Part shown: piece by piece, positions 51,666 to 64,000 of the stretch
Numbering within the stretch: the stretch's first letter is position 1
Layout: each line of letters starts with the position of its first letter
Assembly: GCF_003710805.1 (NCBI RefSeq)
Contig: NZ_RHHB01000002.1
Coordinates: forward strand, 124,001 to 188,000
DNA length: 64,000 bases
Direction of reading: 5' to 3'
Source of the DNA: Agromyces tardus
Lineage (GTDB): Bacteria > Actinomycetota > Actinomycetes > Actinomycetales > Microbacteriaceae
Made by a program: the position numbers and the translations under genes
The notes under the pieces: generated by a model
The model's input: only the letters and a program-made list of their open reading frames with translations
The model's database searches: none
What the model was told of the DNA's origin: nothing

Positions 51666-52244
51666 TCAGGCCTTCCGGGTGATGAGGTGCCAGAGGTAGG
51701 CGATGTGCTCGGGCATGTCGATCGACGGGTCGAGCATCCACTGGGTCTGGAGCCCGTCGGCGGCAGCGAGGAAGAGCCCCGCGGCCAGCTCGGGATCGAT
51801 GTCGGGATCGACCCGCCCCGCGGCCTGCTCGAGCCGGATCTGCTCGGCGAAGCGCCGGCGGAACTCGGCGTAGCGCTGGATGAAGAACTCGCGCGCGGGG
51901 TGGTCGGGGTCGCCCGCTTCGGTCGACACCTGCGCGTAGAGCTGCACGAGACCGGGCACCTCGGCGTTGTGGCGCACGACGCCGAGGAACCCCTCCATGA
52001 AGTCGGTCGTGTCGGGCTCGAACGCCGAGGCGTCGACCTCGTCGCGCTTGCGGAGGATCTCCTGGAAGAGCTCCTCCTTCGACGAGAAGTAGTGCAGCAG
52101 GCCGGCCTGGCTGAGGCCGACGGCCTCGGCGAGCTCCCGCACCGAGGTGCGACGGTACCCGTTGCGCGCGATCACCTCGAGGGCGGCGGTGAGGATCTCC
52201 TCCCGCTTCGCCACGCCCTTGGCGTATGAACCGCGTTGTGCCAT
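51666..52244 (-). CDS. TetR family regulator of the glycoside/esterase divergon
   Basis: 192 residues from the ATG at 52244 (MAQRGSYAKGVAKREEILTAALEVIARNGYRRTSVRELAEAVGLSQAGLLHYFSSKEELFQEIL). The upstream extension of the frame carries no family resemblance. The C-terminal ligand domain contains FIQRYAEFRRRFAEQIRLEQAAGRV. It is co-transcribed with the esterase gene and divergent from an MFS transporter/beta-glucosidase operon, and an inverted repeat lies between, so it likely controls both sides in response to a sugar or glycoside. Confidence 0.87.
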   Translation of the reverse strand: MAQRGSYAKGVAKREEILTAALEVIARNGYRRTSVRELAEAVGLSQAGLLHYFSSKEELFQEILRKRDEVDASAFEPDTTDFMEGFLGVVRHNAEVPGLVQLYAQVSTEAGDPDHPAREFFIQRYAEFRRRFAEQIRLEQAAGRVDPDIDPELAAGLFLAAADGLQTQWMLDPSIDMPEHIAYLWHLITRKA

Positions 52245-52278
52245 GCGCCCAGCGTAAACCGAGCACTGCTTGAAATTG

Positions 52279-52301
52279 AAAACCGAGCGATGTATGGTTT
52301 T
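52279..52301. promoter_or_regulatory. Inverted repeat, probable TetR operator
   Basis: AAAACC (52279-52284) is mirrored by GGTTTT (52296-52301) over an 11-base centre. The half-site AAACCGAGC also occurs just upstream at about 52256 as AAACCGAGCACTG, giving direct repeats on the TetR side. The region is the AT-richest for several hundred bases and should hold both promoters. Confidence 0.55.
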
Positions 52302-52340
52302 GCCACCCTCACCGATGAGGCACCCCCGAAAGGACCGCAC

Positions 52341-53618
52341 ATGACGATGGCGTCAGCCCCTGCGCCCACCCTCGAAGCCGACGGCACCGACGAACCTCGC
52401 CCCCTCGTGCGGGGCACCGTCAGGCGCCTGCTCGGCTGGATCATCCCGGCGAACATGTCGATCTTCGTGCTGTGGGGCGCGATCCCCGGCCTGCTGCTCG
52501 CGACCCAGGTGCAGCAGATCGACGAGGCGAACAAGGTCGGCAACCTCGCCGTCGTCACGACGATCGGCGCCTTCGCGGCGATGCTCGCCCAGCCGATCGC
52601 CGGCCAGGTCTCCGACCGCACGCGCAGCCGCTTCGGGCGTCGTGCCCCGTGGATGGTCGCGGGCGTGCTCATCGGCGGCCTCGCTCTCGTGGGCATGGGC
52701 CTCGCGAACACCATCGCCCAGATCGCCATCGCCTGGGTCATCGTGCAGGTCGCCTACAACTTCACGCAGGGGCCGCTGTCGGCGATCCTGCCCGACCGCG
52801 TGCCCCGCGCGGCCCGGGGCACGTTCTCGGCGCTCGCCGGCCTCGGCGCCATGCTCGGCGCGCTCGGCGGCCAGATCGTCGGCTCGATGCTGCTCTCGAA
52901 CATCCCCGCGGCCTACGTCGTGCTCGCCGGCACCGCGATCGTCGTGATCGTGCTCTTCGTGGTGTTCAACCCCGACCACTCGTCGACGGACCTCGCGCGC
53001 GAGCCGTTCTCGGTCGTCGAGTTCCTCAAGACGTTCTGGGTCAGCCCCGTGCAGCACCCCGACTTCTTCTGGGCCTTCACCGGCCGCCTGCTGCTCTACA
53101 CGGGCTACTTCGCCGTGGTCGGCTACCAGCTCTTCATCCTGCAGGACTTCATCGGACTCGGCGACGCCGCAGGCTCCGTCATCCCGATCTTCGGCCTCGC
53201 GTCGCTCGCGGGCATCGTCGTCTCGACGCTCGTCTCGGGCCCGCTGTCCGACAAGCTCGGTCGTCGCAAGATCTTCGTGTTCCTCTCGTCGGTCGTCACC
53301 GGCGTCGCGTTCCTCGTGCCGCTCGTCATGCCCACGTTCGAGGGCTGGCTCATCTTCTCGGTCGTGTCGGGCCTCGGCTTCGGCATGTTCGGCGCCGTCG
53401 ACACCGCCCTCATGAGCGAGGTGCTGCCGTCGGCGAAGTCGTTCGCGAAGGACCTCGGCGTCGTGAACATCGCCGCGACCCTGCCGCAGACGCTCGCCCC
53501 CGCCGTCGCCGGCGCGATCGTGCTCGCCTTCGGCGGCTACGCCGCGCTGTTCCCGATCGCGATCCTGCTCTCGGTGCTCGGCGCGTTCGCCGTGTGGCCG
53601 ATCAAGGCGGTGCGCTGA
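52341..53618 (+). CDS. MFS transporter, glycoside/sugar type
   Basis: 425 residues from the ATG at 52341 with GAAAGGA five bases upstream. Twelve membrane segments. The first cytoplasmic loop motif is GQVSDRTRSRFGRRAPWMVAG, which matches the GPH/YcaD-type MFS pattern (D-R-x-S-R-x-G-R-R), and SGPLSDKLGRRKIFVF is its echo between segments 8 and 9. With the beta-glucosidase encoded 43 bases downstream, import of an oligosaccharide or glycoside is the simplest reading. Confidence 0.88.
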   Translation: MTMASAPAPTLEADGTDEPRPLVRGTVRRLLGWIIPANMSIFVLWGAIPGLLLATQVQQIDEANKVGNLAVVTTIGAFAAMLAQPIAGQVSDRTRSRFGRRAPWMVAGVLIGGLALVGMGLANTIAQIAIAWVIVQVAYNFTQGPLSAILPDRVPRAARGTFSALAGLGAMLGALGGQIVGSMLLSNIPAAYVVLAGTAIVVIVLFVVFNPDHSSTDLAREPFSVVEFLKTFWVSPVQHPDFFWAFTGRLLLYTGYFAVVGYQLFILQDFIGLGDAAGSVIPIFGLASLAGIVVSTLVSGPLSDKLGRRKIFVFLSSVVTGVAFLVPLVMPTFEGWLIFSVVSGLGFGMFGAVDTALMSEVLPSAKSFAKDLGVVNIAATLPQTLAPAVAGAIVLAFGGYAALFPIAILLSVLGAFAVWPIKAVR

Positions 53619-53661: not shown

Positions 53662-55968
53662 ATGACCGAAACGCTCAGCCACGCGGCATCCGCTGCCGAC
53701 ATCGTCGACGGACTGACCCTCGAGCAGAAGGCCGCCCTCACGAGCGGCGCGAGCTTCTGGCGCACCAAGCAGGTCGGCCCCGTGCCGTCGATCATGCTCA
53801 CCGACGGCCCGCACGGCGTGCGCAAGCAGGACGAGAGCGCCGACCACCTCGGCATCAACGACTCGGTGAAGGCCACGTGCTTCCCGCCCGCCGTGGCGCT
53901 CGGCTCGTCGTTCGACCCCGAGCTGCTCGAGCGCGTGGGCGTCGCCCTCGGCGAGGAGGCGCGCGCCGAGGGCGTGGGGGTGCTGCTCGGCCCGGGCATC
54001 AACATCAAGCGCTCGCCCCTGTGCGGCCGCAACTTCGAGTACCTCTCGGAGGACCCGATCGTCTCGGGCGTGCTCGGATCGGCGCTCGTGCGCGGCCTGC
54101 AGTCGCAGGGCGTGGGGGCATCGCTCAAGCACTACGCGGCGAACAACCAGGAGGACGACCGCATGCGCGTATCGGCCGACATCGACCCGCGGCCGCTGCG
54201 CGAGATCTACCTGCGCGGCTTCCAGCGCGTCGTCGAGGACGAGCAGCCGTGGACCGTCATGTGCTCGTACAACCGCGTCAACGGCATCCCCGCGTCGGAG
54301 CACCACTGGCTGCTCACCGAGGTGCTGCGGGACGACTGGGGCTTCGACGGCCTCGTCGTGTCGGACTGGGGCGCCGTCACGAACCGTGTGAATGCGCTCG
54401 CCGCGGGCCTCGACCTCGAGATGCCCGCCAACGACGGCCGCTCCGACGCGCAGCTCGTCGCGGCCGTGCGGGCCGGCGAGCTCGACGAGTCGGTGCTCGA
54501 CACCGGCGCGACGCGGGTCGTCTCGCTCGTGCAGCGGGCGCTCGCGGGCGCCGACGCCGATGCCTCCTACGACCGCGACGCGCACCACGGGCTCGCCCGC
54601 GAGGCCGCGGCGGCGAGCATCGTGTTGCTGCGCAACGAGGGCGGGGTGCTGCCGCTCGCGCCCGAGGCATCCGTCGCCGTGATCGGCGAGTTCGCCCGCA
54701 CGCCCCGCTTCCAGGGCGGCGGCAGCTCGCACATCAACCCGACCCGCGTCGACAGCGCGCTCGAGGCGATCCGCGAGGTCGCCGGCGCCGGCGCGGTCGC
54801 GTTCGCGCCCGGCTTCACGATCGACGGGTCGGATGCCGCGGGGCTCGCCGACGAGGCCGTGGCCGCCGCATCCGCCGCCGACGTGGCCGTGCTCTTCCTC
54901 GGCCTGCCCGCGAGCCTCGAGTCGGAGGGCTACGACCGCCGCGACATCGAGCTCCCCGTGGAGCAGCTCGAGCTCGTCGACCGCGTGCTCGCCGTGAACC
55001 CGAACACCGTCGTGGTGCTCTCGAACGGCGGCGTCGTGCGGCTCGCGCCGTTCGCCGAGCGCGTGCCCGCGATCCTCGAGACGTGGCTGCTCGGCCAGGC
55101 CGGCGGCGGCGCCGTCGCCGACGTGCTGTACGGCGCCGTGAACCCCGCGGGGCGGCTCACCGAGACGGTGCCCGTGCGCCTGCAGGACACTCCCGCGTGG
55201 GGCAACTTCCCCGGCGAACACGGCCACGTGCGCTACGGCGAGGGACTGCTCGTGGGCTACCGCTGGTACGACGCGCGCGAACTCGATGTCACCTACCCCT
55301 TCGGGCACGGACTCTCGTACACGACCTTCGAGTACGGCGACGCGGTCGTCTCCTCGGATGACGACGGCCTCGCGCTGCGCGTACCGGTGACGAACACCGG
55401 CGAGCGCGACGGCGCCGAGGTCGTGCAGGTCTACACCTCGCTGCCCGGCTCCGCCGTGGCCCGTGCACCCCGGGAGCTCAAGGGCTTCGCGAAGGTCGCG
55501 CTCGCCGCGGGGGAGCGCCGCGAGGTCGAGGTGCGCGTGCGCCGCAGCGACCTCGCCTACTGGGACACCCGGGTCGACCTGTGGCTCGTCGAGGGCGGCG
55601 AGTACACGGTCGAGGTCGGGGCGTCGAGCCGCGACATCCGCGGGGCCGTGACCGTCGACGTCGAGGGCGACCCCGTGCGGGTGCCGCTCACGGTCGAGTC
55701 GACGATCGCCGAGGTCATGGCGCACCCCGTCGCCGGACCGATGGTCGCCCCCGCCTTCGCGGCGATGGCCGCCGACATGCTGGGCGGCGCGCACGCCGAC
55801 GGCGAGGCGACGGCGGAGTCGGCCGGCGGGCTCGGCATCGACGCCGAGGGCATGATGCAGATGATGGGCGCGATGCCGATCGGTCGCGCCGTCATGTTCC
55901 CGGGGTCGCCGTTCGGGTTCGAGCAGCTCGAGCAGCTCATCGCGTCCGCCAACGCGCCGCAGGCGTAG
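53662..55968 (+). CDS. Glycoside hydrolase family 3 beta-glucosidase
   Basis: 768 residues with GAAAGGA upstream. The N-terminal GH3 barrel contains SYNRVNGIPASEHHWLLTEVLRDDWGFDGLVVSDWGAV, where D235 of VSDWG is the nucleophile. The C-terminal GH3 domain, with FQGGGSSHINPTRVDSALEAI, follows from about residue 310. A fibronectin III-like domain (ELKGFAKVALAAGERREVEVRVRRSDLAYWD) lies near 600-665. The last 90 residues have methionines and GHxx repeats (MMQMMGAMPIGRAVMFPGSPFGFEQLEQL), unusual for the family. No signal peptide, so it acts on sugars imported by the adjacent transporter. Confidence 0.92.
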   Translation: MTETLSHAASAADIVDGLTLEQKAALTSGASFWRTKQVGPVPSIMLTDGPHGVRKQDESADHLGINDSVKATCFPPAVALGSSFDPELLERVGVALGEEARAEGVGVLLGPGINIKRSPLCGRNFEYLSEDPIVSGVLGSALVRGLQSQGVGASLKHYAANNQEDDRMRVSADIDPRPLREIYLRGFQRVVEDEQPWTVMCSYNRVNGIPASEHHWLLTEVLRDDWGFDGLVVSDWGAVTNRVNALAAGLDLEMPANDGRSDAQLVAAVRAGELDESVLDTGATRVVSLVQRALAGADADASYDRDAHHGLAREAAAASIVLLRNEGGVLPLAPEASVAVIGEFARTPRFQGGGSSHINPTRVDSALEAIREVAGAGAVAFAPGFTIDGSDAAGLADEAVAAASAADVAVLFLGLPASLESEGYDRRDIELPVEQLELVDRVLAVNPNTVVVLSNGGVVRLAPFAERVPAILETWLLGQAGGGAVADVLYGAVNPAGRLTETVPVRLQDTPAWGNFPGEHGHVRYGEGLLVGYRWYDARELDVTYPFGHGLSYTTFEYGDAVVSSDDDGLALRVPVTNTGERDGAEVVQVYTSLPGSAVARAPRELKGFAKVALAAGERREVEVRVRRSDLAYWDTRVDLWLVEGGEYTVEVGASSRDIRGAVTVDVEGDPVRVPLTVESTIAEVMAHPVAGPMVAPAFAAMAADMLGGAHADGEATAESAGGLGIDAEGMMQMMGAMPIGRAVMFPGSPFGFEQLEQLIASANAPQA

Positions 55969-56072: not shown

Positions 56073-56088
56073 ATCGTAAGGATCTCCC
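56073..56088. promoter_or_regulatory. CGTAAG element upstream of the MTAP-like gene
   Basis: The sequence GATCGTAAGGATCTCC, 37 bases before the start codon, shares the core CGTAAGG with elements at 60007-60022 and 63768-63845. Those are upstream of the other transcription units of the 56-64 kb cluster. Position suggests a promoter or the binding site of the cluster's own response regulator. Confidence 0.5.
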
Positions 56089-56124
56089 TTCCGCGGCACG
56101 GGGCGCGCGCGGCAGGCTGGGTGG

Positions 56125-56943
56125 ATGACGAGCATCGTGGGCGTGATCGGCGGCTCGGGCCTGGGCGTGCTGGTCGACGGCGGCGAGCCGCGCGAGATCC
56201 CGACGCCGTTCGGTCCGGCGACCGTGACGATCGGCGAGCTCGGCGGGCGGACCATCGCGTTCCTGCCCCGTCACGGCGCCGGGCACACGATCGCGCCGCA
56301 TCGCATCAACGCACGCGCGAACCTGTGGGCGCTCGCGAGCGTCGGGGTGCGCGCCGTGGTGTCGACCGCTGCGGTCGGATCGCTCAGCCCGGGCCACCTG
56401 CCCGAGTCGTTCGCCCTCGCCGACCAGCTCGTCGACCGCACGTTCGGACGCGCCGACACCTACTTCGACTCGGGGCCCGTGCGTCACCTGCCGTTCGCCG
56501 AACCGTTCTGCCCGGTGCTGCGTGGGCTCGCGATCGAGGCGCTGCCGGATGCCGCGCCGCGAGCGACCGTCGCCGTGATCCAGGGGCCCCGGTTCTCGAC
56601 CGCCGCCGAGTCGCGGATCCTCCGCGATGCCGGCGTGGATCTCGTCAACATGACGCTCTGTCCCGAGGTCGCGCTCGCCGCCGAGATCGGCATCGGCACC
56701 GTCGCCATCTGCGTGGTCACCGACACCGACAGCGGCACCTCGGCAGACGATCCCGATGCGGTCACGGCCGAACTCGTCTTCCGCCGCCTCGCCGAGGCGA
56801 AGCCGCGCATCGTCGCTGCGATCGCGCGGATCGTCGCGGCCGTGCCCGGCGACTACGTGCCGCGCCCCCTGATCGACGAGGAGACGGTCGCGGCGCTGCG
56901 AGCACTGCCGGTGCCACCGCCGCCGCTGTCCGTCACGCCATGA
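56125..56943 (+). CDS. S-methyl-5'-thioadenosine phosphorylase-like nucleoside phosphorylase
   Basis: 272 residues. VIGGSGLGVL, AFLPRHGAGHTIAPHRINARANLWALASVGVRAVVSTAAVGSLS, IQGPRFSTAAESRILRDAGVDLVNMTLCPEVALAAEIGI and TDTDSG are the MTAP/PNP family-2 signatures, with N-M-T at the ribose/base site and TDTDSG replacing the usual TDYDxW of MTA phosphorylase. It would release adenine or another base from a 5'-modified nucleoside and give a ribose-1-phosphate derivative. It overlaps the epimerase gene (ATGA). The substitution at the base-site loop leaves the true substrate open. Confidence 0.82.
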   Translation: MTSIVGVIGGSGLGVLVDGGEPREIPTPFGPATVTIGELGGRTIAFLPRHGAGHTIAPHRINARANLWALASVGVRAVVSTAAVGSLSPGHLPESFALADQLVDRTFGRADTYFDSGPVRHLPFAEPFCPVLRGLAIEALPDAAPRATVAVIQGPRFSTAAESRILRDAGVDLVNMTLCPEVALAAEIGIGTVAICVVTDTDSGTSADDPDAVTAELVFRRLAEAKPRIVAAIARIVAAVPGDYVPRPLIDEETVAALRALPVPPPPLSVTP

Positions 56944-58007
56944 TGATGCTCGTCACCGGGGGCGCCGGGTTCATCGGTTCGGAGATCGTGCGTCTCGCGG
57001 TCGATCGAGGCGCGGAGGTGCGCGTGCTCGACTCCCTGCGCCCGGACGTGCACCGAGCACCACGCGGTCCGGTCGGCGGGGTGGAGCTCGTACGGGGAGA
57101 CGTGCGGGACGCCACGGTCCTCGATCGGGCCCTGCGCGGCGTCGACGTGGTCTGCCACCAGGCGGCGAAGGTCGGACTCGGCGTCGACCTCTCGGACGCG
57201 CCCGACTACACCGAGAGCAACGTCACCGGCACCGCCGAGCTCGTCGCCGCGATGGACCGTGCGGGCGTCGGCGGACTCGTGCTCGCGTCGTCGATGGTGG
57301 TGTACGGCGAGGGTGCCTACCGCGATGCGTCCGGCCGCCGCCGTCGCCCCACCCCGCGCGCGACGGACGACCTCGACGCCGGCCGCTTCGAGCCCCGCGA
57401 CCCCGACACGGGCGAGCCGCTCGAGGCCGACTTGATCGACGAGGACGACGTGCTCGACCCCCGCAACGTCTACGCGCTCACGAAGCTGGCCCAGGAGCAC
57501 CTCGCCGCGAGCTGGGCGCGTGCGACCGGTGGCAGGGCGGCGATGCTGCGGTACCACAACGTCTACGGCCCCGGGATGCCGCGCAACACGCCCTATGCCG
57601 GTGTCGCGGCCCTGTTCCGCTCGGCGATCGAGCGCGGCGAGGCGCCGCGCGTCTTCGAGGACGGCCGCCAGCGGCGCGACTTCGTGCACGTGACGGATGT
57701 CGCGACCGCGAACCTCGCCGCCGTCGGCGCACTGCCCGCGCAGGCCTCCGGCACCGCCCGTGCGTTCAACGTGGGCTCCGGCATGGTCTCCACGGTCGGC
57801 GAGGTCGCCGCCGGGCTCGCCCGCGTCATGGGCGGACCCGAACCCGTCGTGACGGGGGAGTACCGCCTCGGCGACGTGCGGCACATCACGGCGTCGGCGG
57901 CGCGGGCCCGGGCCGAGCTCGGCTGGCGGGCGCGGGTGTCGCTCGAGGCCGGGTTGCGTGACTTCGCGCGCTCCGGTGCTGGTGACGACGCCGATCCCGG
58001 CCACTGA
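56940..58007 (+). CDS. NAD-dependent epimerase/dehydratase
   Basis: 355 residues from the ATG at 56940, which overlaps the MTAP stop; ATGs at 56943 and 56946 are alternatives. Extended SDR fold: MLVTGGAGFIGSEIVRLAVDRGAEVRVLDSL (TGxxGFxG), LASSMVVYGEGAYRDASG, and catalytic YALTKLAQEHL (Y-xxx-K). Nucleotide-sugar epimerases have this form. An unusual insertion DLDAGRFEPRDPDTGEPLEADLIDEDD precedes the catalytic helix. It may act on the sugar made from the MTAP-like product (inference). Confidence 0.88.
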   Translation: MMMLVTGGAGFIGSEIVRLAVDRGAEVRVLDSLRPDVHRAPRGPVGGVELVRGDVRDATVLDRALRGVDVVCHQAAKVGLGVDLSDAPDYTESNVTGTAELVAAMDRAGVGGLVLASSMVVYGEGAYRDASGRRRRPTPRATDDLDAGRFEPRDPDTGEPLEADLIDEDDVLDPRNVYALTKLAQEHLAASWARATGGRAAMLRYHNVYGPGMPRNTPYAGVAALFRSAIERGEAPRVFEDGRQRRDFVHVTDVATANLAAVGALPAQASGTARAFNVGSGMVSTVGEVAAGLARVMGGPEPVVTGEYRLGDVRHITASAARARAELGWRARVSLEAGLRDFARSGAGDDADPGH

Positions 58008-58072
58008 GGTGCCTCGCGCCGCGGAGCGAGCGCAGGTGCGGGACAGTCCTGACCGGCGCGGGACAGTGCCGA

Positions 58073-59218
58073 TCAGGCGCTGAGCGACGCGTCCCGGGGC
58101 AGCAGCAGGTCGAAGCGGCATCCGCCCGGCACGTTGCGCACGGCGACCTCGCCTCGGTGCGCGCTCATGATGCCCTTGACGATCGCGAGGCCGAGCCCGG
58201 CGCCGCTCGAGCGGCCGTCGTGGAGGGAGGGCGTGCGCGCCTTCGACCCCCGCCAGGCCGGCTCGAATACGCGGTCGAGGTCGTCCTCGTCGATACCGCC
58301 GCCCGCGTCGATGACCGACACCATCGCGCGGTCGTCGACGAGGTCGACCGCGACGGTGATCGGCGAGCCCTCGGGAGTGTGCTGGATGGCGTTCATGAGC
58401 AGGTTGCCGATCGCGCGCGAGAGCTCGCGAGGATCGGCCATCACCACGAGGTCCTGTGCGAGCGGCGCCTCGACGCGGATCTCGCGACCGCGTGATGCGG
58501 GCCGCAGGTCGGCGACCGTGTCGCTCACGACGTCGTAGAGCGACACCTCCTCGAGCGAGAGCCGCAGCGCGTCGGAGTCGATCTTCGACAACTCGAAGAG
58601 GTCGTCGACCATGCTCGAGAGCTGGTCGACCTGCATGCGCATCTGCCGGTGATAGCGGGCGGGGTCGGGCGCGATCCCGTCCTCGAGGGCCTCGGCCATC
58701 GCCCGGATGCCGGCGAGCGGCGTGCGCAGGTCATGCGAGATCCAGGCGACGAGCTCCCGGCGGGAGGCTTCGATCCGCTGCTCCCGCTCTCGGGACTCTG
58801 CGAGCCTCGCACTCGTCGCGACGAGCTCGTCGGCGAGGTCGTTGAACTCGCTGTTCGAGTACCGGCCGGCCGACTCCAGGCGTTCGCCCGCGCCGATCCG
58901 CCGAGCAGCGGCCGAGAGCGAGCGGGAGTTTCGCGCGACGAGCACGCCGAGCACCGCCACGAGCAAGAGGGACACGATGCCCGAGATGCCCGCCACGGCC
59001 ACCGCGACCGTGAGGTCGTGCTCCGAGAGGTACATCTGGTTCGCGACGCCCACCATGCTCGCGACGACCGACACGATCGCGGCGAGCACGAGCACCCACA
59101 CCTGCACGGCGAGCGACGCTCGCCGCAGCAGCACGAGCGCGGCGACGCCCAGACCGCCGACGACCGCCGTGGTGGCGAGCGCGACGCCGGCGATCGCCGC
59201 AAGATCAGACCACGGCAT
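58073..59218 (-). CDS. Sensor histidine kinase
   Basis: 381 residues from the ATG at 59218; a GTG at 59230 is the alternative. Four hydrophobic segments in the first 95 residues (AAIAGVALATTAVVGGLGVAALVLL, VWVLVLAAIVSVVASMVGVA, LTVAVAVAGISGIVSLLLVAVLGVLVA) and no large outer domain, so the signal is sensed in or near the membrane. HAMP-like linker, then H-box WISHDLRTPLAGIRAMAEAL with phosphorylated His near residue 162, N-box NLLMNAIQHTP, and G-boxes DAGGGIDEDD and SSGAGLGLAIVKGI. Coupled to the response regulator by an overlap of 14 bases. Confidence 0.92.
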   Translation of the reverse strand: MPWSDLAAIAGVALATTAVVGGLGVAALVLLRRASLAVQVWVLVLAAIVSVVASMVGVANQMYLSEHDLTVAVAVAGISGIVSLLLVAVLGVLVARNSRSLSAAARRIGAGERLESAGRYSNSEFNDLADELVATSARLAESREREQRIEASRRELVAWISHDLRTPLAGIRAMAEALEDGIAPDPARYHRQMRMQVDQLSSMVDDLFELSKIDSDALRLSLEEVSLYDVVSDTVADLRPASRGREIRVEAPLAQDLVVMADPRELSRAIGNLLMNAIQHTPEGSPITVAVDLVDDRAMVSVIDAGGGIDEDDLDRVFEPAWRGSKARTPSLHDGRSSGAGLGLAIVKGIMSAHRGEVAVRNVPGGCRFDLLLPRDASLSA

Positions 59219-59954
59219 CCGCAGCACCACCCATCGTGAATCGGTACCCCACGCCCCACACGGTCGTCAGCATCGTCGGAGCACGAGGGTCGAGCTCGAT
59301 CTTCTCGCGGAGGCGGCGCACGTGCACCGTGACCGTCGAGAGGTCGCCGTGCGTCCATCCCCACACCGTGCGCAGCAGGTCCTCTCGGCTGAACACCTGG
59401 TTCGGATGCTTCAGCAGGAACTCGAACAGGTCGAATTCGCGCAGTGTCAGCGGCAGTTCGACGCCGCCCCGGGTCGCGACGCGTGCCGACGGGTCCAGGC
59501 GGAACTCGCCGTACTCGAGTACGGACTCGGGCGTGAACTCGCCGATCGACCGGCGCAGCACCGACTGCACGCGCAGCACGAGCTCGCGCGGCGAGAACGG
59601 CTTCGCGAGGTAGTCGTCGGCGCCGGCCTCGAGGCCCGCGATGCGGTCGTCCTCCGAGCCGAGGGCGGTGAGCAGGATGACCGGGGTCGACATCCGCTCG
59701 CGCAGTCGACGGAACACCTCGAGGCCGTCGATGCCGGGGAGCATGCGGTCGAGCACGATCAGGTCGGGCGCGAGGCGGTCGGCCGCCTGCAGCGCCGCGA
59801 ACCCGTCACTCGCCTCCTCGACGACGAATCCGCTCGCTCGCAGGTAGCTCGAGGCGACCTCGGCGACCGTCGGGTCGTCGTCGACGAGCAGGACCCGTCG
59901 GCCCACGAGGTCCTCGTTGCCGGTCGACGAGGGAGCAGCGGGGGACACGCTCAC
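59205..59954 (-). CDS. OmpR-family response regulator
   Basis: 249 residues from a GTG. Receiver domain with DDD at 25-27 and phosphoacceptor D69 in LIVLDRMLPGIDGLEVF, then T and K in LLTALGSEDDRIAGLEAGADDYLAKPFSPREL. The winged-helix DNA-binding domain ends GWTHGDLSTVTVHVRRLREKIELDPRAPTMLTTVWGVGYRF. It probably binds the CGTAAG elements of this cluster, including the one in its own divergent promoter (inference). Confidence 0.93.
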   Translation of the reverse strand: MSVSPAAPSSTGNEDLVGRRVLLVDDDPTVAEVASSYLRASGFVVEEASDGFAALQAADRLAPDLIVLDRMLPGIDGLEVFRRLRERMSTPVILLTALGSEDDRIAGLEAGADDYLAKPFSPRELVLRVQSVLRRSIGEFTPESVLEYGEFRLDPSARVATRGGVELPLTLREFDLFEFLLKHPNQVFSREDLLRTVWGWTHGDLSTVTVHVRRLREKIELDPRAPTMLTTVWGVGYRFTMGGAADAVV

Positions 59955-60006
59955 AGACTACGTCCGCTGCGGCGGCGCGTCCGCGACGGTCGGGCATCCG
60001 TCCGTG

Positions 60007-60022
60007 TTCCGTAAGACTTGAC
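60007..60022. promoter_or_regulatory. CGTAAG element in the divergent promoter of regulator and glycosyltransferase
   Basis: TTCCGTAAGACTTGAC. It agrees at 12 to 13 of 16 positions with TTCCGTAAGGTTTCAC at 63836-63851. It lies between the response-regulator start (59954) and the GT2 start (60060), so it could serve both. Confidence 0.55.
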
Positions 60023-60059
60023 CCGCCACCCACGGCTGCCGCATGGCTAGCGTCGGACC

Positions 60060-60728
60060 ATGACCGCTGCCCGCGTCGACCTCGTGCTCCCGTGCCTCGA
60101 CGAGGAGCATGCGCTGCCGTGGGTGCTCGCACGCCTGCCCGCAGGCGTGCGCGCGATCGTCGTCGACAACGGCTCCACCGACCGCTCTGCGGCGATCGCT
60201 CGGGAGCACGGCGCCCGCGTCGTGACCGAACCCCGCCGCGGCTTCGGCGCCGCGGCCAACGCCGGCCTCGAGGCGGCGGATGCCGCGTACGTCGCGTTCT
60301 GCGACGCCGACGCATCGCTCGACCCCGCCGAGCTTCCGCGCCTGCTCGCGCTCGTCGAGGGCGGTGAAGCCGATCTCGTGCTCGGACGTCGCCGCCCGAC
60401 GAGCCGCCGTGCGTGGCCGGTGCACGCCCGCCTCGCCAACCGGGTGCTCGCCGCACGGATGTCGCGCCGCACGGGCGTGCGCCTGCACGACCTCGGACCG
60501 ATGCGCCTGGCCCGCACCGCCGAACTGCGTTCGCTCCGCCTGCGCGACCGGCGCAGCGGCTTCCCGCTCGAGATGGTGCTGCGCGCCGCGACCGCCGGTT
60601 GGGCCATCCGGGAGGTCGACGTCGCCTACGCCCCGCGCGCGGGGCGGTCGAAGGTCACGGGCACGGTGCGCGGCACCGTCACCGCCGTCGCCGACATGTC
60701 GCGGGTCTTCGCGGAGGTCGAACGATGA
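60060..60728 (+). CDS. Family 2 glycosyltransferase
   Basis: 222 residues. GT-A fold with VDLVLPCLDEEHALPWVLARLPAGVRAIVVDNGSTDRSAAIAREHGARVVTEPRRGFGAAANAGLEAA and FCDADASLDPAELPRLLALV (the DxD-like DAD). C-terminal TGVRLHDLGPMRLARTAELRSLRLRDRRSGFPLEMVLRAA resembles the TIGR04283/DPM-like group. No membrane segment. It would pass a sugar from a nucleotide sugar to a small acceptor or a lipid. The stop overlaps the next start (ATGA). Confidence 0.87.
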   Translation: MTAARVDLVLPCLDEEHALPWVLARLPAGVRAIVVDNGSTDRSAAIAREHGARVVTEPRRGFGAAANAGLEAADAAYVAFCDADASLDPAELPRLLALVEGGEADLVLGRRRPTSRRAWPVHARLANRVLAARMSRRTGVRLHDLGPMRLARTAELRSLRLRDRRSGFPLEMVLRAATAGWAIREVDVAYAPRAGRSKVTGTVRGTVTAVADMSRVFAEVER

Positions 60729-61384
60729 CCACGGTGGTCGTCATCGCGAAGGAGTGCCGACCCGGGCGGGTCAAGACCCGGCTCACGCCGCCGTTCTCCC
60801 CCGTCGAGGCGGCCCACCTCGCGGCCGCGAGCCTCGACGACACCCTCGCGGCGGTCGGCGACCTGCCGGTCGCACGGCGCCTGCTCTACTTCGCCGGGAC
60901 CCGCGTGCCCGCGCTGGCACGCGACCTCGGATTCGAGCTGTTGCCGCAGGCCGACGGCGGGCTCGACGCCCGGCTCGCGCACCTCTTCGACGTGCTCGCG
61001 GAGCCGGCCCTGCTCGTGGGCATGGATACGCCGCAGCTCACCACGACGGACGTCGCGCCGGCGTTGGTGGGGCTCGCCGCTCCTCGCTCGGACGCCACGA
61101 GCAGCGCAGTCGACTGCTGGTTCGGGCCGGCTGCCGATGGCGGCTTCTGGGCGCTCGGCATGCGCGAGCCGCGTGGCGACGTCATCCGCGGGGTGCCGAT
61201 GTCCCGGGCCGACACGGGCGCGCTGCAGCGCCGCCGCTTGGAGGCCGAGGGACTTGCGGTGGGCGCGCTGCCGGTGCTCACGGACATCGACACCGCGGAC
61301 GACGCATCCCTCGTCGCAGCCATCGCGCCGAGCTCGCGGTTCGCGCACGAGTTCCGTCGCCTCGGGGCGGGGCGGCCGGCATGA
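60725..61384 (+). CDS. DUF2064 / TIGR04282 glycosyltransferase-like protein
   Basis: 219 residues from the ATG at 60725. VVVIAKECRPGRVKTRLTPPFSPVEAAHLAAASLDDTLAAV is the DUF2064 opening, resembling nucleotidyltransferase folds. GMDTPQLTTTDVAPAL and WFGPAADGGFWALGMREPRGDVIRGVPMSRADTG are the family's metal-site and sugar-site motifs. Members are annotated as arsenosugar-associated glycosyltransferases, or as companions of radical SAM/selenoprotein clusters. Coupled to both neighbours by ATGA overlaps. No ArsM or ArsS is seen here, so an arsenic link is not shown. Confidence 0.83.
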   Translation: MTTVVVIAKECRPGRVKTRLTPPFSPVEAAHLAAASLDDTLAAVGDLPVARRLLYFAGTRVPALARDLGFELLPQADGGLDARLAHLFDVLAEPALLVGMDTPQLTTTDVAPALVGLAAPRSDATSSAVDCWFGPAADGGFWALGMREPRGDVIRGVPMSRADTGALQRRRLEAEGLAVGALPVLTDIDTADDASLVAAIAPSSRFAHEFRRLGAGRPA

Positions 61385-62115
61385 GCACGTCCACCGTCGA
61401 CGGCATCGACGGCGGGGCCTTCGGCGCCGGGCGCGGCGAGCCCTACGGCAGGGCGCTCGCGAACGACCGCGGGACGCTGTCGCTCCGCAGCGTCGACGGT
61501 GCGCACGGGCCGTACCGCCTCGACGTCGGCAGCTGGGTGCGCTCGGCGACGGCCGCCGACCTCACCGTGCTCGACGGCGCGACCGGACCGACGCTCGACG
61601 TCGGCTGCGGGCCGGGGCGGATGGTGCGTGCGGCCGCGGCCCGCTCGATCCCGGCGCTCGGAATCGACATCGCTCCGCACGCCGTCGCCCGCACGCGCGT
61701 CGACGGGAGCCTCGCCCTGCTGCGTTCCGTGTTCGGTCGGGTCCCCCTCGAGGGGCGCTGGCAGCGGGTGCTGCTCATGGACGGCAACGTCGGCATCGGC
61801 GGCGACCCCGAGGCGCTCCTGCGTCGCTGCCGTGCGCTGCTCGCGCCGCTTGGCTCGATCGTCGTCGAGGTCGAGGCGGACCCCGCGCTCGAGGTCCGCT
61901 CGCTCTGCACGGTGGTCGACGACGACGGCAACGAGAGCGAGCCGTTCCCCTGGGCGCGCATCGGATGGGTCGCCGTCGAAGCGGTCGCCCGGCGGGCAGG
62001 CCTCGCTATCGCCGCCCACTGGGTGGCGTCGGGACGTCACTTCGTGCGAGCGGTGCCCGTGCCGTCGTCCGTGGCCGACTCGGTTCCGGTGTCGGCGGCG
62101 GCGCCGGCCCCCTGA
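61381..62115 (+). CDS. Class I SAM-dependent methyltransferase
   Basis: 244 residues from the ATG at 61381. Motif I is TLDVGCGPGRMVRAAAARSIPALGIDIAPHAVARTR; motif post I has the acidic D of GIDI; RVLLMDGNVGIGGDPEALLRRCRALLAPLGSIVVEVEADP is motif II to III. The N-terminal 70 residues, GRGEPYGRALANDRGTLSLRSVDGAHGPYRLDVGSW, precede the Rossmann fold and may bind substrate. It probably methylates the product of this pathway. The C-terminal 26 codons overlap the convergent membrane-protein gene. Confidence 0.85.
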   Translation: MSTSTVDGIDGGAFGAGRGEPYGRALANDRGTLSLRSVDGAHGPYRLDVGSWVRSATAADLTVLDGATGPTLDVGCGPGRMVRAAAARSIPALGIDIAPHAVARTRVDGSLALLRSVFGRVPLEGRWQRVLLMDGNVGIGGDPEALLRRCRALLAPLGSIVVEVEADPALEVRSLCTVVDDDGNESEPFPWARIGWVAVEAVARRAGLAIAAHWVASGRHFVRAVPVPSSVADSVPVSAAAPAP

Positions 62116-62543
62116 GGGGAGCCGACCGTCCGCGCCGACGCTCCCGACCGCCACAGGGCGACGGCCGCGACGGTGGCGAGCACCGCCCATGCCAGCGCGA
62201 GCGACCACGCGTACGAGCCCACCAGGATCGTCGGGTTCGGATTGCCGCGTGTCGACGCGATGATCGCGGGCAACGCGATCGCGGTGAGGATCGCGCCGAC
62301 GAGCAGCGCCCCCTGTGCCACCGCGATGCCGCGCCGGCCCACCCGCCCCCGGGCTCGCGCCGCCCCCAGCCCGATCGCGACCGCGATCGGCGCGATCACC
62401 GCGTCGTGCACGACGATCGCGGCGCCCACCCACACCACGATGCCGAGGTAGCGGTCGGGCGGCACCTCCGTCAGCAGCACGAAGCCGCCGGCGCCCACGA
62501 GCCCCAGGCCGAGGCCGATCAGGATGCCGCGCGCCGCGCTCAT
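62037..62543 (-). CDS. Membrane protein with four transmembrane segments
   Basis: 168 residues from the ATG at 62543, which overlaps the stop of the molybdopterin oxidoreductase gene (ATGA). Segments: RGILIGLGLGLVGAGGFVLL, YLGIVVWVGAAIVVHDAVIAPIAVAIGLG, IAVAQGALLVGAILTAIALPAIIA and YAWSLALAWAVLATVAAVALW. The tail is hydrophilic and overlaps the methyltransferase gene by 79 bases on the other strand. I recognise no family. Coupling to the oxidoreductase suggests a membrane partner. Confidence 0.75.
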   Translation of the reverse strand: MSAARGILIGLGLGLVGAGGFVLLTEVPPDRYLGIVVWVGAAIVVHDAVIAPIAVAIGLGAARARGRVGRRGIAVAQGALLVGAILTAIALPAIIASTRGNPNPTILVGSYAWSLALAWAVLATVAAVALWRSGASARTVGSPQGAGAAADTGTESATDDGTGTARTK

Positions 62544-63724
62544 GCCGCCACCTCGATCGATCGCAGCCACTTCGTCTGCATGACCCCCGGCCGGCCGGGT
62601 GCGATCACGCGGGCGGGGTAGCCGTGGTCGACGTGCAGCACCGAACCGTTGAGCTCGAGTGCGATGAGGGTGAGCGGATCCCGGGCGTACTCGGGCGGCA
62701 TCTCGGTGCGAGCGAAGCTCCCACGCGTCTGGAGGCTCGTGAACACGAGCGGCGTCGTCGGCTCGGCCCCCACCTCCGCCAGCAGGTCGACGAGGCGCAC
62801 GCCGCGCCACGAGGCCGACTGGCTCCAGCCCTCCACGCACGCGATCGGCAGCACGACGTCGGCCTGCGGCATCCGTCGCAGCTCCTCGAGCGAGAACGCT
62901 CGCGAGCCGGCCGGCGTGACGAGCTCGAGCGACCAGCCCGGCGCGACCGCGGTCTCGGTCACGCCTGCCTGCGCGGCAGTGCGATTGACCGGCAGCCCCT
63001 GCGGGCCCACGCCCATGCGGCGGGGTGCGAACACGTTGAACGGGGAGAGCGCGTCGACCGACTGCCCGGCGGTGAGCAGCACGGCGGAGGCGGTGGCGGC
63101 GGTGACCCCGCCGACGAAGGCTCGGCGCGAGACGAAGCGCCCCGCGGCATCCGGATCGTCGCGGGCCGGCCGCCGCCAGAGCCGCGCGATCACGGGAAGC
63201 TTGACGCCGATGTGGATCGCCAGGCTGCCGATCGCGATCCAGGCGAGCGCGAAGTGCGTCGAGCGGAACGAGAACGGGAACGGGTACCACTGCACGATGT
63301 TGAGCAGGCCGATCGTCACCTCGACGAGCGAGACGCCGACGAGCACCGCGATCGACACGCGCTCGAGCAGGTTCGGGAGCGAGCGAACGGGCGGCCACGT
63401 GAAGAGCGCGGGATAGACCGTCCAGAGCTTCCCGAGCAGCAGGGGCACCGACGCGATACCCGAGATCACGTGCAGGCCCTGCGTGAACCGGTAGAGCTCG
63501 GCGGGTCGCGTCGGCAGCGGAATCCACGGCAACGGGTCCTGGAGCAGGTGGCTGTAGAGCCCCGTGGCGAAGCACACGAGGAACGCCGCGGCGAGCAGCC
63601 GGCCGATGACGACGGCCGAGCGCTCGGACTTCACGGGGTCGGCGGCCGCGTCGCGCGCGCGCCGCACGCCGGGCTCGAGCCGGGCGGCGAGCCGCGCCGA
63701 GACGCGTGCGGTGAGGTCGGCCAT
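62540..63724 (-). CDS. Molybdopterin-dependent oxidoreductase with b-type cytochrome-like membrane domain
   Basis: 394 residues. Residues about 40-185 contain four membrane segments with histidines in YSHLLQDPLPW, FTQGLHVISG, STHFALAWIA and AIHIGVKLP, a layout suited to two hemes. A fifth hydrophobic segment after RRAFVGGVTAATASAVLLTAG leads to an outer SUOX-type molybdopterin domain, with VLPIACVEGWSQSASWRGVRLVDLLAE and the molybdenum-ligand cysteine C296. YPARVIAPGRPGVMQTKWLRSIEV at the C-terminus is typical. It would pass electrons between the quinone pool and a substrate outside the membrane. Confidence 0.87.
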   Translation of the reverse strand: MADLTARVSARLAARLEPGVRRARDAAADPVKSERSAVVIGRLLAAAFLVCFATGLYSHLLQDPLPWIPLPTRPAELYRFTQGLHVISGIASVPLLLGKLWTVYPALFTWPPVRSLPNLLERVSIAVLVGVSLVEVTIGLLNIVQWYPFPFSFRSTHFALAWIAIGSLAIHIGVKLPVIARLWRRPARDDPDAAGRFVSRRAFVGGVTAATASAVLLTAGQSVDALSPFNVFAPRRMGVGPQGLPVNRTAAQAGVTETAVAPGWSLELVTPAGSRAFSLEELRRMPQADVVLPIACVEGWSQSASWRGVRLVDLLAEVGAEPTTPLVFTSLQTRGSFARTEMPPEYARDPLTLIALELNGSVLHVDHGYPARVIAPGRPGVMQTKWLRSIEVAA

Positions 63725-63767
63725 GAGTCCAGTCGAGCACTCGGCACCCGACGATGCAGCCGCCAGT

Positions 63768-63851
63768 CCTTACGGTTCGCGAACGGGCGGCCCCGGGGCC
63801 GCGACGGGCGGATGTCGCGACCGCCGCCGTTCGCGTTCCGTAAGGTTTCAC
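63768..63851. promoter_or_regulatory. Two inverted CGTAAG elements between divergent genes
   Basis: On the minus strand AACCGTAAGGACTGGC ends upstream of the oxidoreductase gene (CCTTACGG at 63768-63775 on the plus strand). On the plus strand TTCCGTAAGGTTTCAC begins at 63836, upstream of the gene at 63968. Each faces the gene it would control, as for a site tied to promoter orientation. Confidence 0.55.
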
Positions 63852-63967
63852 GGGCTCCGCTGCGGCATCCTCGTCCGTAGTCTCGCAACAGCGGGCCTCC
63901 CGCAGGCCGGCACGGTCGACTCGCGCCCGTCCCGCGCCCGCGCACCGACCCAGCCACGAGGAGCGGC

Positions 63968-64000
63968 ATGAACGTCGAGACCGACACCGCGCGCGAGCGC
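63968..64000 (+). CDS. Start of a further gene of the cluster (truncated)
   Basis: ATG at 63968 preceded by GAGGAG, reading MNVETDTARER before the window ends. It is under its own CGTAAG element and divergent from the oxidoreductase. Too short to identify. Confidence 0.6.
   Translation, partial: MNVETDTARER

What the first reader, a model, noticed from the sequence alone, without database searches (positions are those of the whole stretch)
56073..64000. Uncharacterised two-component-controlled cluster: nucleoside phosphorylase, epimerase, glycosyltransferases, methyltransferase, molybdopterin oxidoreductase
Seen: MTAP-like and epimerase genes coupled by ATGA; GT2, DUF2064 and methyltransferase coupled by two ATGA overlaps; membrane protein coupled to a heme/molybdopterin oxidoreductase; a kinase-regulator pair in the middle. 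Known: DUF2064/TIGR04282 proteins accompany arsenosugar and rSAM/selenodomain loci, and nucleoside phosphorylases remove the base from 5'-modified adenosines. Inference: a pathway that starts from a 5'-modified nucleoside, frees its ribose-1-phosphate, epimerises, glycosylates and methylates it, with the molybdoenzyme acting at the membrane. I know of no defined product for this gene set in actinobacteria. This is my leading candidate for an undescribed system.
Basis: partly seen in the sequence, partly recalled or inferred. Interest (0 to 1): 0.78.

Follow-up and report, generated by a model that had tools for sequence, protein, structure and literature searches.

The report
Methylthio-sugar decoration pathway beyond mycobacteria
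A soil actinobacterium (Agromyces) carries an extended form of the gene set with which mycobacteria turn a waste nucleoside into a rare sulfur-containing sugar for their cell surface, so this decoration may be far more widespread than thought.

Summary
The genes are present where stated, with the stated ATGA couplings. The set recurs across Actinomycetota. Five of its genes (MTA phosphorylase, epimerase, GT2, DUF2064, GT-C) are orthologues of a mycobacterial locus that I equate with Rv0535-Rv0541c, which makes the methylthioxylose (MTX) cap of lipoarabinomannan (MtxS = GT2, MtxT = GT-C). So the core chemistry has a known product in mycobacteria. New here: (1) the set lies in many genera outside mycobacteria, where a 2024 paper calls the pathway's existence unclear; (2) in Agromyces the MTA phosphorylase is tied to the set (12 of 12 GT-C-positive, 1 of 25 negative genomes) and MtnA was not found, so it looks dedicated; (3) the full form adds a methyltransferase and a membrane molybdoenzyme with a twin-arginine motif and sulfite-oxidase/MsrP-like domain, both absent from the minimal mycobacterial form. 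I infer a methylthio-pentofuranose put on an envelope glycan, the molybdoenzyme acting on its methylthio/sulfoxide group. Sugar, acceptor and added steps are untested.

The parts
56125..56943 (+). S-methyl-5'-thioadenosine phosphorylase (MTAP): predicted to make 5-methylthioribose-1-phosphate from MTA
   Evidence: NF005876 E 1.9e-71 and TIGR01694 E 4.8e-66, both below curated cut-offs; solved MTAPs such as 2a8y E 3.1e-49; H121 and D200-x-D202 invariant in 9 cluster MTAPs
56940..58007 (+). NAD-dependent SDR epimerase (Rv0536/GalE3 orthologue): predicted ribo-to-xylo epimerase
   Evidence: PF01370 E 4.6e-48; Y177xxxK181 and S117 invariant in 17; 54% to L080
58073..59230 (-). sensor histidine kinase
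   Evidence: PF00512, PF02518; kinase in 32 of 61 named loci of 17 kb or more
59205..59954 (-). OmpR-type response regulator
   Evidence: PF00072, PF00486; regulator in 32 of 61
60060..60728 (+). GT2 glycosyltransferase, MtxS orthologue: predicted polyprenyl-phosphate methylthiopentose synthase
   Evidence: PF00535 E 1.6e-22; best NCBIfam match dolichyl-phosphate hexose transferase, below cut-off; D82xD84 and R193..S197 K198 invariant in 17; 52% to L080
60725..61384 (+). DUF2064 / CofC-like protein (Rv0540 orthologue): predicted nucleotidyltransferase that activates the sugar phosphate
   Evidence: PF09837 E 1e-18; TIGR03552 CofC E 3.2e-7, below cut-off; K17 T18 R19, D101, D138 G139 G140 invariant in 18
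61381..62115 (+). class I SAM methyltransferase: predicted tailoring of the sugar, substrate unknown
   Evidence: PF13649 E 3.9e-6; D72-x-GCGPGR invariant in 22
62037..62543 (-). small membrane protein coupled to the molybdoenzyme
   Evidence: no family match; tblastn hit in 17 of 80 named loci
62540..63724 (-). membrane molybdoenzyme: four-helix domain, twin-arginine motif, sulfite-oxidase-fold Mo domain
   Evidence: PF00174 E 1.9e-24; R200, R201, C296 invariant and H85, H157, H171 at least 90% in 40 sequences; model pLDDT 84.8; fold matches sulfite oxidases and 1xdq/1xdy
63968..64000 (+). start of a GT-C fold glycosyltransferase (448 aa, runs on to 65314 in contig terms), MtxT orthologue
   Evidence: model of the A. 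lapidis orthologue pLDDT 94.6, best fold match AftA E 2.5e-4; 43% to L080

Best explanation
A dedicated pathway for a methylthio-pentofuranose decoration of an envelope glycan, orthologous to the mycobacterial MTX pathway and more complete. Predicted steps: (1) MTAP splits 5'-methylthioadenosine into adenine and 5-methylthioribose-1-phosphate; (2) DUF2064 activates the sugar phosphate with a nucleotide; (3) the epimerase changes ribo to xylo (or another) configuration; (4) GT2 moves the sugar to polyprenyl phosphate; (5) after flipping, the GT-C enzyme transfers it to an extracytoplasmic glycan; (6) the methyltransferase tailors the sugar; (7) the exported molybdoenzyme oxidises or, more likely, reduces the methylthio/sulfoxide group, as MsrPQ does for methionine sulfoxide; (8) the kinase/regulator pair adjusts expression. 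Shown here by sequence: gene identity, orthology, co-occurrence, predicted folds of GT-C and of the Mo domain. Reported for mycobacteria (seen in papers that cite the original): steps 4 and 5 and MTA as origin. Inferred: order of steps 2 and 3, the exact sugar, the acceptor, and steps 6 to 8.
For: Five window genes match the mycobacterial locus L080 (MTAP 48%, EPI 54%, GT2 52%, DUF2064 38%, GT-C 43%), which is flanked by FabH (1hzp, E 1.5e-205) and MenB (1q51, E 2e-196), i.e. the Rv0533c-Rv0548c interval (gene order and organism of these entries recalled). MtxS=Rv0539, MtxT=Rv0541c: PMC8780516. Origin from MTA: PMC11127046. In the own genome the window genes are the best matches of L080 GT2 (220 against 77 bits) and EPI (325 against 52). 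Of 61 named loci of 17 kb or more: EPI 56, GT2 56, DUF2064 54, MT 51, MOCO 48, MTAP 39. In 37 Agromyces genomes MTAP and the EPI orthologue fall in the same 13 and GT-C in 12 of these, also in five genomes where GT-C lies apart from the rest. MtnA in 0 of 37. GT-C folds best like AftA. MTX in LAM also occurs as its sulfoxide (PMC9912281).
Against: No product is known for Agromyces. Four of 46 GT-C-positive phylum genomes have no detected MTAP (G086, G113, G311, G348); three of these are at least 96% complete, and G113 and G348 hold most of the set (L092, L098). Many GT-C-positive loci have no MTAP close by (38 of 52 unnamed loci), though most of their genomes have one elsewhere. MTAP and DUF2064 score below curated cut-offs. 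MTX sulfoxide is reported from M. tuberculosis and M. kansasii, while the minimal loci seen here lack the molybdoenzyme, so it is not needed to form sulfoxide. The MTX-mannose antibody S4-20 gave no signal with Gordonia, Nocardia, Rhodococcus, Tsukamurella or four fast-growing mycobacteria (PMC6258851), some of whose relatives hold the set. M. tuberculosis sequences themselves were not compared. Relatedness of genomes inflates the co-occurrence tests.
Confidence: 0.72

Rival explanations
1. The same transport and transfer machinery, but a different pentofuranose (for example ribofuranose, arabinofuranose or plain xylofuranose), with MTAP acting on another nucleoside or not needed.
For: 38 of 52 unnamed loci lack MTAP close by, among them the Streptomyces-like and many deep-branching ones; 4 of 46 GT-C-positive genomes show no MTAP at all; GT-C folds like AftA and AftB, which are arabinofuranosyltransferases.
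Against: In Agromyces MTAP is tied to the set; in the phylum sample 42 of 46 GT-C-positive genomes have MTAP against 197 of 350 others (Fisher 1.5e-6); D-x-D and H121 are kept in 9 cluster MTAPs.
Confidence: 0.18
2. An arsenosugar or other radical-SAM linked pathway, as suggested by the name of the DUF2064 family TIGR04282.
For: DUF2064 matches TIGR04282 (E 2.2e-31) and GT2 weakly TIGR04283 (E 6.5e-10).
Against: Both are under the curated cut-offs (109 of 134 and 39 of 182 bits); none of the nine proteins has a radical-SAM match in Pfam; no further family of that kind stood out among those shared by five or more neighbourhoods, read by eye.
Confidence: 0.02
3. Ordinary methionine salvage with unrelated neighbours: MTAP recycles MTA, and the glycan genes merely lie beside it.
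For: MTAP is a salvage enzyme elsewhere and occurs in many genomes without GT-C (197 of 350).
Against: MtnA was found in 0 of 37 Agromyces genomes; MTAP follows the set within the genus; MTAP-EPI adjacency in 50 of 50 named loci that hold both.
Confidence: 0.05
4. The core pathway is right, but the molybdoenzyme is an unrelated repair or respiratory enzyme, for example a sulfite dehydrogenase or a reductase for protein methionine sulfoxide.
For: It scores better against sulfite dehydrogenase models (55 bits, TIGR04555) than against MsrP (32.5 bits), all far below cut-offs; it is missing from some loci (L058; L120).
Against: It sits in the set in 48 of 61 named loci of 17 kb or more, which asks for a joint role; a sulfoxide of the product is on record.
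Confidence: 0.4

Closest known systems
Methylthioxylose (MTX) capping of mycobacterial lipoarabinomannan (MtxS Rv0539, MtxT Rv0541c; neighbours Rv0535, Rv0536, Rv0540)
   Same: Five orthologous genes, the same MTAP-EPI and GT2-DUF2064 pairs, a GT-C transferase with a lipid-linked donor
   Different: The Agromyces form adds methyltransferase, molybdoenzyme with small membrane partner and a kinase/regulator pair; LAM as acceptor cannot be assumed; the minimal mycobacterial loci lack the additions
Three-component system for extracytoplasmic pentofuranose addition (PNAS 2024, PMC11127046)
   Same: Lipid-linked pentose donor, epimerase, GT-C transferase outside the membrane
   Different: That system starts from PRPP with a polyprenyl phosphoribose synthase and a MATE-family protein (passages); none of the nine window proteins matches such families
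MsrP/MsrQ (periplasmic methionine sulfoxide reductase)
   Same: Exported sulfite-oxidase-fold Mo domain plus membrane domain, thioether/sulfoxide chemistry proposed
   Different: Fused into one protein with a membrane domain that matches no Pfam family; under the MsrP cut-off
TIGR04282/TIGR04283 arsenosugar gene pair
   Same: A DUF2064 gene next to a GT2 gene
   Different: Both under the curated cut-offs, no radical-SAM match in the nine proteins

Membership tests
Mycobacterial MTX pathway | GT-C transferase orthologous to MtxT | tested here: met
   43% to GT-C of L080, a locus flanked by FabH and MenB; one match in the own genome; GT-C fold. The link to Rv0541c is by recalled gene order
Mycobacterial MTX pathway | GT2 orthologous to MtxS | tested here: met
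   54% best match of L080 GT2 in the own genome, next 77 bits
Mycobacterial MTX pathway | MTA phosphorylase, epimerase and DUF2064 neighbours | tested here: met
Mycobacterial MTX pathway | direct sequence comparison with M. tuberculosis Rv0535-Rv0541c | not tested
   no M. tuberculosis genome was pinned down
Mycobacterial MTX pathway | product is 5-deoxy-5-methylthio-xylofuranose on mannose caps of LAM | not testable with these tools
   needs chemistry
MsrP/MsrQ | sulfite-oxidase fold with Cys ligand and twin-arginine motif | tested here: met
   C296, R200, R201 invariant in 40; fold; the motif's role is recalled
MsrP/MsrQ | over the MsrP family cut-off | tested here: not met
   NF003767 32.5 of 207 bits
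MsrP/MsrQ | separate MsrQ membrane partner | tested here: not met
   membrane domain is fused and has no Pfam match; the small membrane protein has none either
Arsenosugar TIGR04282/TIGR04283 pair | both families over their cut-offs | tested here: not met
   109 of 134 and 39 of 182 bits
Three-component pentofuranose system | polyprenyl phosphoribose synthase and MATE-family protein in the set | tested here: not met
   no such Pfam match in the nine window proteins; the GT-C gene and the rest of the genome were not scanned for them
Methionine salvage | MtnA in genomes that have the MTAP | tested here: not met
   0 of 37 Agromyces

The most novel reading that the evidence does not exclude
Across Actinomycetota, far beyond LAM producers, cells put a methylthio-pentofuranose on their envelope, tailor it with a methyltransferase, and keep its sulfur redox state under enzymatic control with a fused molybdenum/cytochrome-like enzyme outside the membrane: a redox-active sugar coat, of which the tuberculosis MTX cap is a stripped-down remnant.
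Probability: 0.4. Interest if true: 0.8.

Novelty: new variant of a known kind. Interest (0 to 1): 0.62.

Why it matters
MTX has been described as a unique residue of LAM of the M. tuberculosis complex (PMC10675199, passages), although it is also reported from M. kansasii (PMC9912281), and it is the target of a urine test for tuberculosis (PMC6258851). If many environmental actinobacteria make MTX or a close variant, its origin, function and specificity need another look. The full cluster also holds what the minimal mycobacterial loci lack: genes that may explain MTX sulfoxide chemistry, in organisms in which the pathway can be studied easily. It further gives a dedicated use for MTA in bacteria in which the salvage isomerase MtnA was not found.

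Tried and rejected
Considered and rejected: arsenosugar pathway (family scores); plain methionine salvage; chance neighbours (control: neighbourhoods of MTAP genes lying apart from GT-C in G108, G081 and G138 gave no other member of the set, L115-L117).

Led nowhere: the IS6110 primer pattern in 396 genomes of the mycobacterial genus gave 0 matches, so no M. tuberculosis genome was pinned down. The MTA/SAH nucleosidase family TIGR01704 was absent from all 37 Agromyces genomes and so did not tell cluster-bearing from other genomes. A PDB search with the MTAP of L080 listed 13 sequences, but the output names no organisms. Paper searches for DUF2064 with glycosyltransferase and for MTA phosphorylase with Agromyces gave 0 papers each; methylthioxylose with Nocardia gave 2, 5-deoxy-5-methylthio with cell wall polysaccharide 1; a search on Agromyces walls listed 10 of 48 papers, none of the 10 holding the word Agromyces. 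The key paper, Angala 2017, is not held, so whether it already lists orthologues outside mycobacteria is unknown to me.

Papers: passages seen of PMC11127046, PMC8780516, PMC8081860, PMC10675199, PMC3229680, PMC9912281, PMC3089613 (36, reference list only), PMC6258851; search listings only for the rest. Angala 2017 was seen only as a cited reference.

Recalled, from no call: M. tuberculosis gene order Rv0533c-Rv0548c and the organism of PDB 1hzp and 1q51; that 1xdq/1xdy is YedY/MsrP; the meaning of the D-x-D, His, R-S-K, K-T-R and Y-x-x-x-K motifs; the twin-arginine export rule; MsrPQ chemistry; that f21 is Streptomyces-like before names came (and the tree bear it out).


Full report
What is there. 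The window lies in an Agromyces genome: the same-genus genomes G013 and G015 have the GT-C gene on contigs of exactly the lengths (326807 and 789644) of named A. lapidis and A. terreus contigs with the same gene. The nine genes of the finding are real, with ATGA overlaps at 56940, 60725, 61381 and, on the minus strand, 62540-62543. Beyond the window edge the next gene starts at 63968 and encodes a 448-residue polytopic protein. A model of its A. lapidis orthologue has mean pLDDT 94.6; its best solved fold match is the arabinofuranosyltransferase AftA (E 2.5e-4, TM 0.45), then ArnT (3.0e-3), with AftB and PimE lower. It is a GT-C enzyme and the missing transferase of the set.

Does the set move together? 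The GT-C protein was searched in 396 genomes spread over the phylum: 46 have it, in 28 of 236 genera; a few of these matches are weak. In 52 fetched neighbourhoods (11 from Agromyces, 41 from 40 of the other 45 positive phylum genomes, several cut short by contig ends) EPI is found in 42, GT2 in 41, DUF2064 in 40, MT in 35, MOCO in 33, the kinase in 32, MTAP in 14. They come from Agromyces, Microbacterium, Curtobacterium, Homoserinibacter, Nocardioides, Marmoricola, Brevibacterium, Williamsia, Gordonia, Streptomyces, Asanoa, Amycolatopsis, Nesterenkonia, Nocardia, Rhodococcoides, Mycobacterium and others. Among the 61 loci of 17 kb or more: EPI 56, GT2 56, DUF2064 54, MT 51, MOCO 48, MTAP 39, kinase 32, regulator 32. 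The other 19 loci are shorter. Some carry GT-C alone (L126, L149, L189, L198).

A link that does not rest on adjacency. Of 37 Agromyces genomes 12 have GT-C. MTAP is in 13 and the EPI orthologue (over 300 bits) in the same 13 (weaker matches of 210-222 bits occur in G021, G023 and, as a second copy, G028). The odd one, G014, is an assembly of about 840 contigs. 12 of 12 GT-C genomes have MTAP against 1 of 25 others (Fisher 7.0e-9; related genomes are not independent). In five genomes GT-C lies apart from the rest, yet both are present (L062-L066 with L108-L112). MtnA, which would take methylthioribose-1-phosphate into methionine salvage, is in 0 of 37. So in Agromyces the MTA phosphorylase looks dedicated to this pathway. 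Over the phylum the link is looser: 42 of 46 GT-C genomes against 197 of 350 others have MTAP (Fisher 1.5e-6); four GT-C genomes lack it, and many genomes without GT-C, Streptomyces-like ones among them, have it.

What it is. Locus L080, from genome G206, has MTAP, EPI, GT2, DUF2064 and GT-C and none of the other genes within 20 kb. It groups with named Mycobacterium and Mycolicibacterium rows in the GT-C tree. On one side lies FabH (best solved match 1hzp, E 1.5e-205), on the other MenB (1q51, E 2e-196). I recall these as M. tuberculosis FabH (Rv0533c) and MenB (Rv0548c), so L080 corresponds to Rv0535-Rv0541c. Rv0539 is MtxS, which forms the lipid-linked MTX donor, and Rv0541c is MtxT, which transfers MTX to the mannose caps of LAM (PMC8780516, passages). 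The pathway is reported to start from MTA, and the same 2024 paper calls it unclear whether it exists outside LAM assembly (PMC11127046, passages). The window genes are the best matches of the L080 GT2 and EPI in their genome by wide margins (220 to 77 and 325 to 52 bits); GT-C has one match there, MTAP one, and DUF2064 scores 109 against 33.5 bits for the next.

History. In a GT-C tree of 78 rows (quick method, SH-aLRT only) the four minimal loci L077, L079, L080, L081 form one clade (100) inside a mycobacterial clade (100) in which the five rows of the sister group carry most or all of the added genes, as do Gordonia, one Williamsia and Rhodococcoides around it; exceptions are L198 (GT-C alone) and Nocardia australiensis L195, which also shows the minimal set. 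The simplest reading is that methyltransferase, molybdoenzyme and kinase/regulator were lost in that mycobacterial branch, and again elsewhere, so the full form is the older one. Some long branches (L105, L096) and 23 weakly supported forks are in the tree.

The added enzymes. The molybdoenzyme model (pLDDT 84.8) has four long helices, then an S-R-R-x-F-V motif, a fifth helix and a Mo domain. In 40 sequences R200, R201 and C296 are invariant and H85, H157, H171 at least 90% conserved. The Mo domain matches sulfite oxidases and the bacterial enzyme 1xdy/1xdq; the membrane domain had no significant fold match. I infer an exported Mo domain fed by a heme-carrying membrane domain, a fused counterpart of MsrPQ. 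MTX is found in LAM together with its sulfoxide (PMC9912281, passages), so a thioether/sulfoxide role is the most economical idea; reductase is favoured because the sulfoxide is seen in mycobacteria although the minimal loci lack the enzyme (other copies elsewhere in those genomes were not sought). The methyltransferase has a full SAM motif in 22 sequences; its substrate is open. The antibody S4-20, which needs MTX on mannose, gave signals with the six slow-growing mycobacteria in the table but none with M. smegmatis, M. fortuitum, M. abscessus, M. chelonae, Gordonia, Nocardia, Rhodococcus or Tsukamurella (PMC6258851, passages). Both Gordonia loci here and one of two Williamsia loci carry the full set. 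This fits a modified sugar or another acceptor, but equally no product at all in the strains tested.

Against the reading. No chemistry is known for Agromyces; MTAP and DUF2064 miss curated cut-offs; four GT-C genomes lack MTAP; the sugar could be another pentofuranose. Two Agromyces loci lack the kinase pair, and L058 and L120 lack the molybdoenzyme, so these are not needed for the core.

Verdict. I rate it a new variant of a known kind, of real interest because it is widespread, has extra enzymes and can be tested in environmental laboratory strains.

Noticed in passing
window 56940-58007 and epimerases of L056-L199: The epimerase has an insert at about residues 125-170 that carries a C-x-x-C pair in 79 of 106 relatives, perhaps a zinc ribbon; the pair is missing in the window protein and in the Agromyces sequences of that count.
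   Followed up: partly
L120 (Agromyces humatus), L058 (G029): Natural variants: L120 shows no hit to methyltransferase, molybdoenzyme or small membrane protein; L058 none to the last two.
   Followed up: no
L062-L066, L113: In five Agromyces genomes the GT-C gene sits alone, far from the otherwise complete set; in G012 there is a further GT-C-like copy in pieces.
   Followed up: partly
L009:13391-15007 (minus strand): Beside GT-C lies a secreted-looking protein with repeated segments (read by eye); it is not among the families shared by five or more neighbourhoods.
   Followed up: no
window 52236-53618 and 53662-55968: A transporter-like and a beta-glucosidase-like gene (read by eye) lie just upstream of the set; neither is among the families shared by five or more neighbourhoods.
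   Followed up: no
all 37 Agromyces genomes G000-G036: Neither MtnA nor the MTA/SAH nucleosidase family TIGR01704 was found, so the fate of MTA in the 24 genomes without MTAP is unclear.
   Followed up: no
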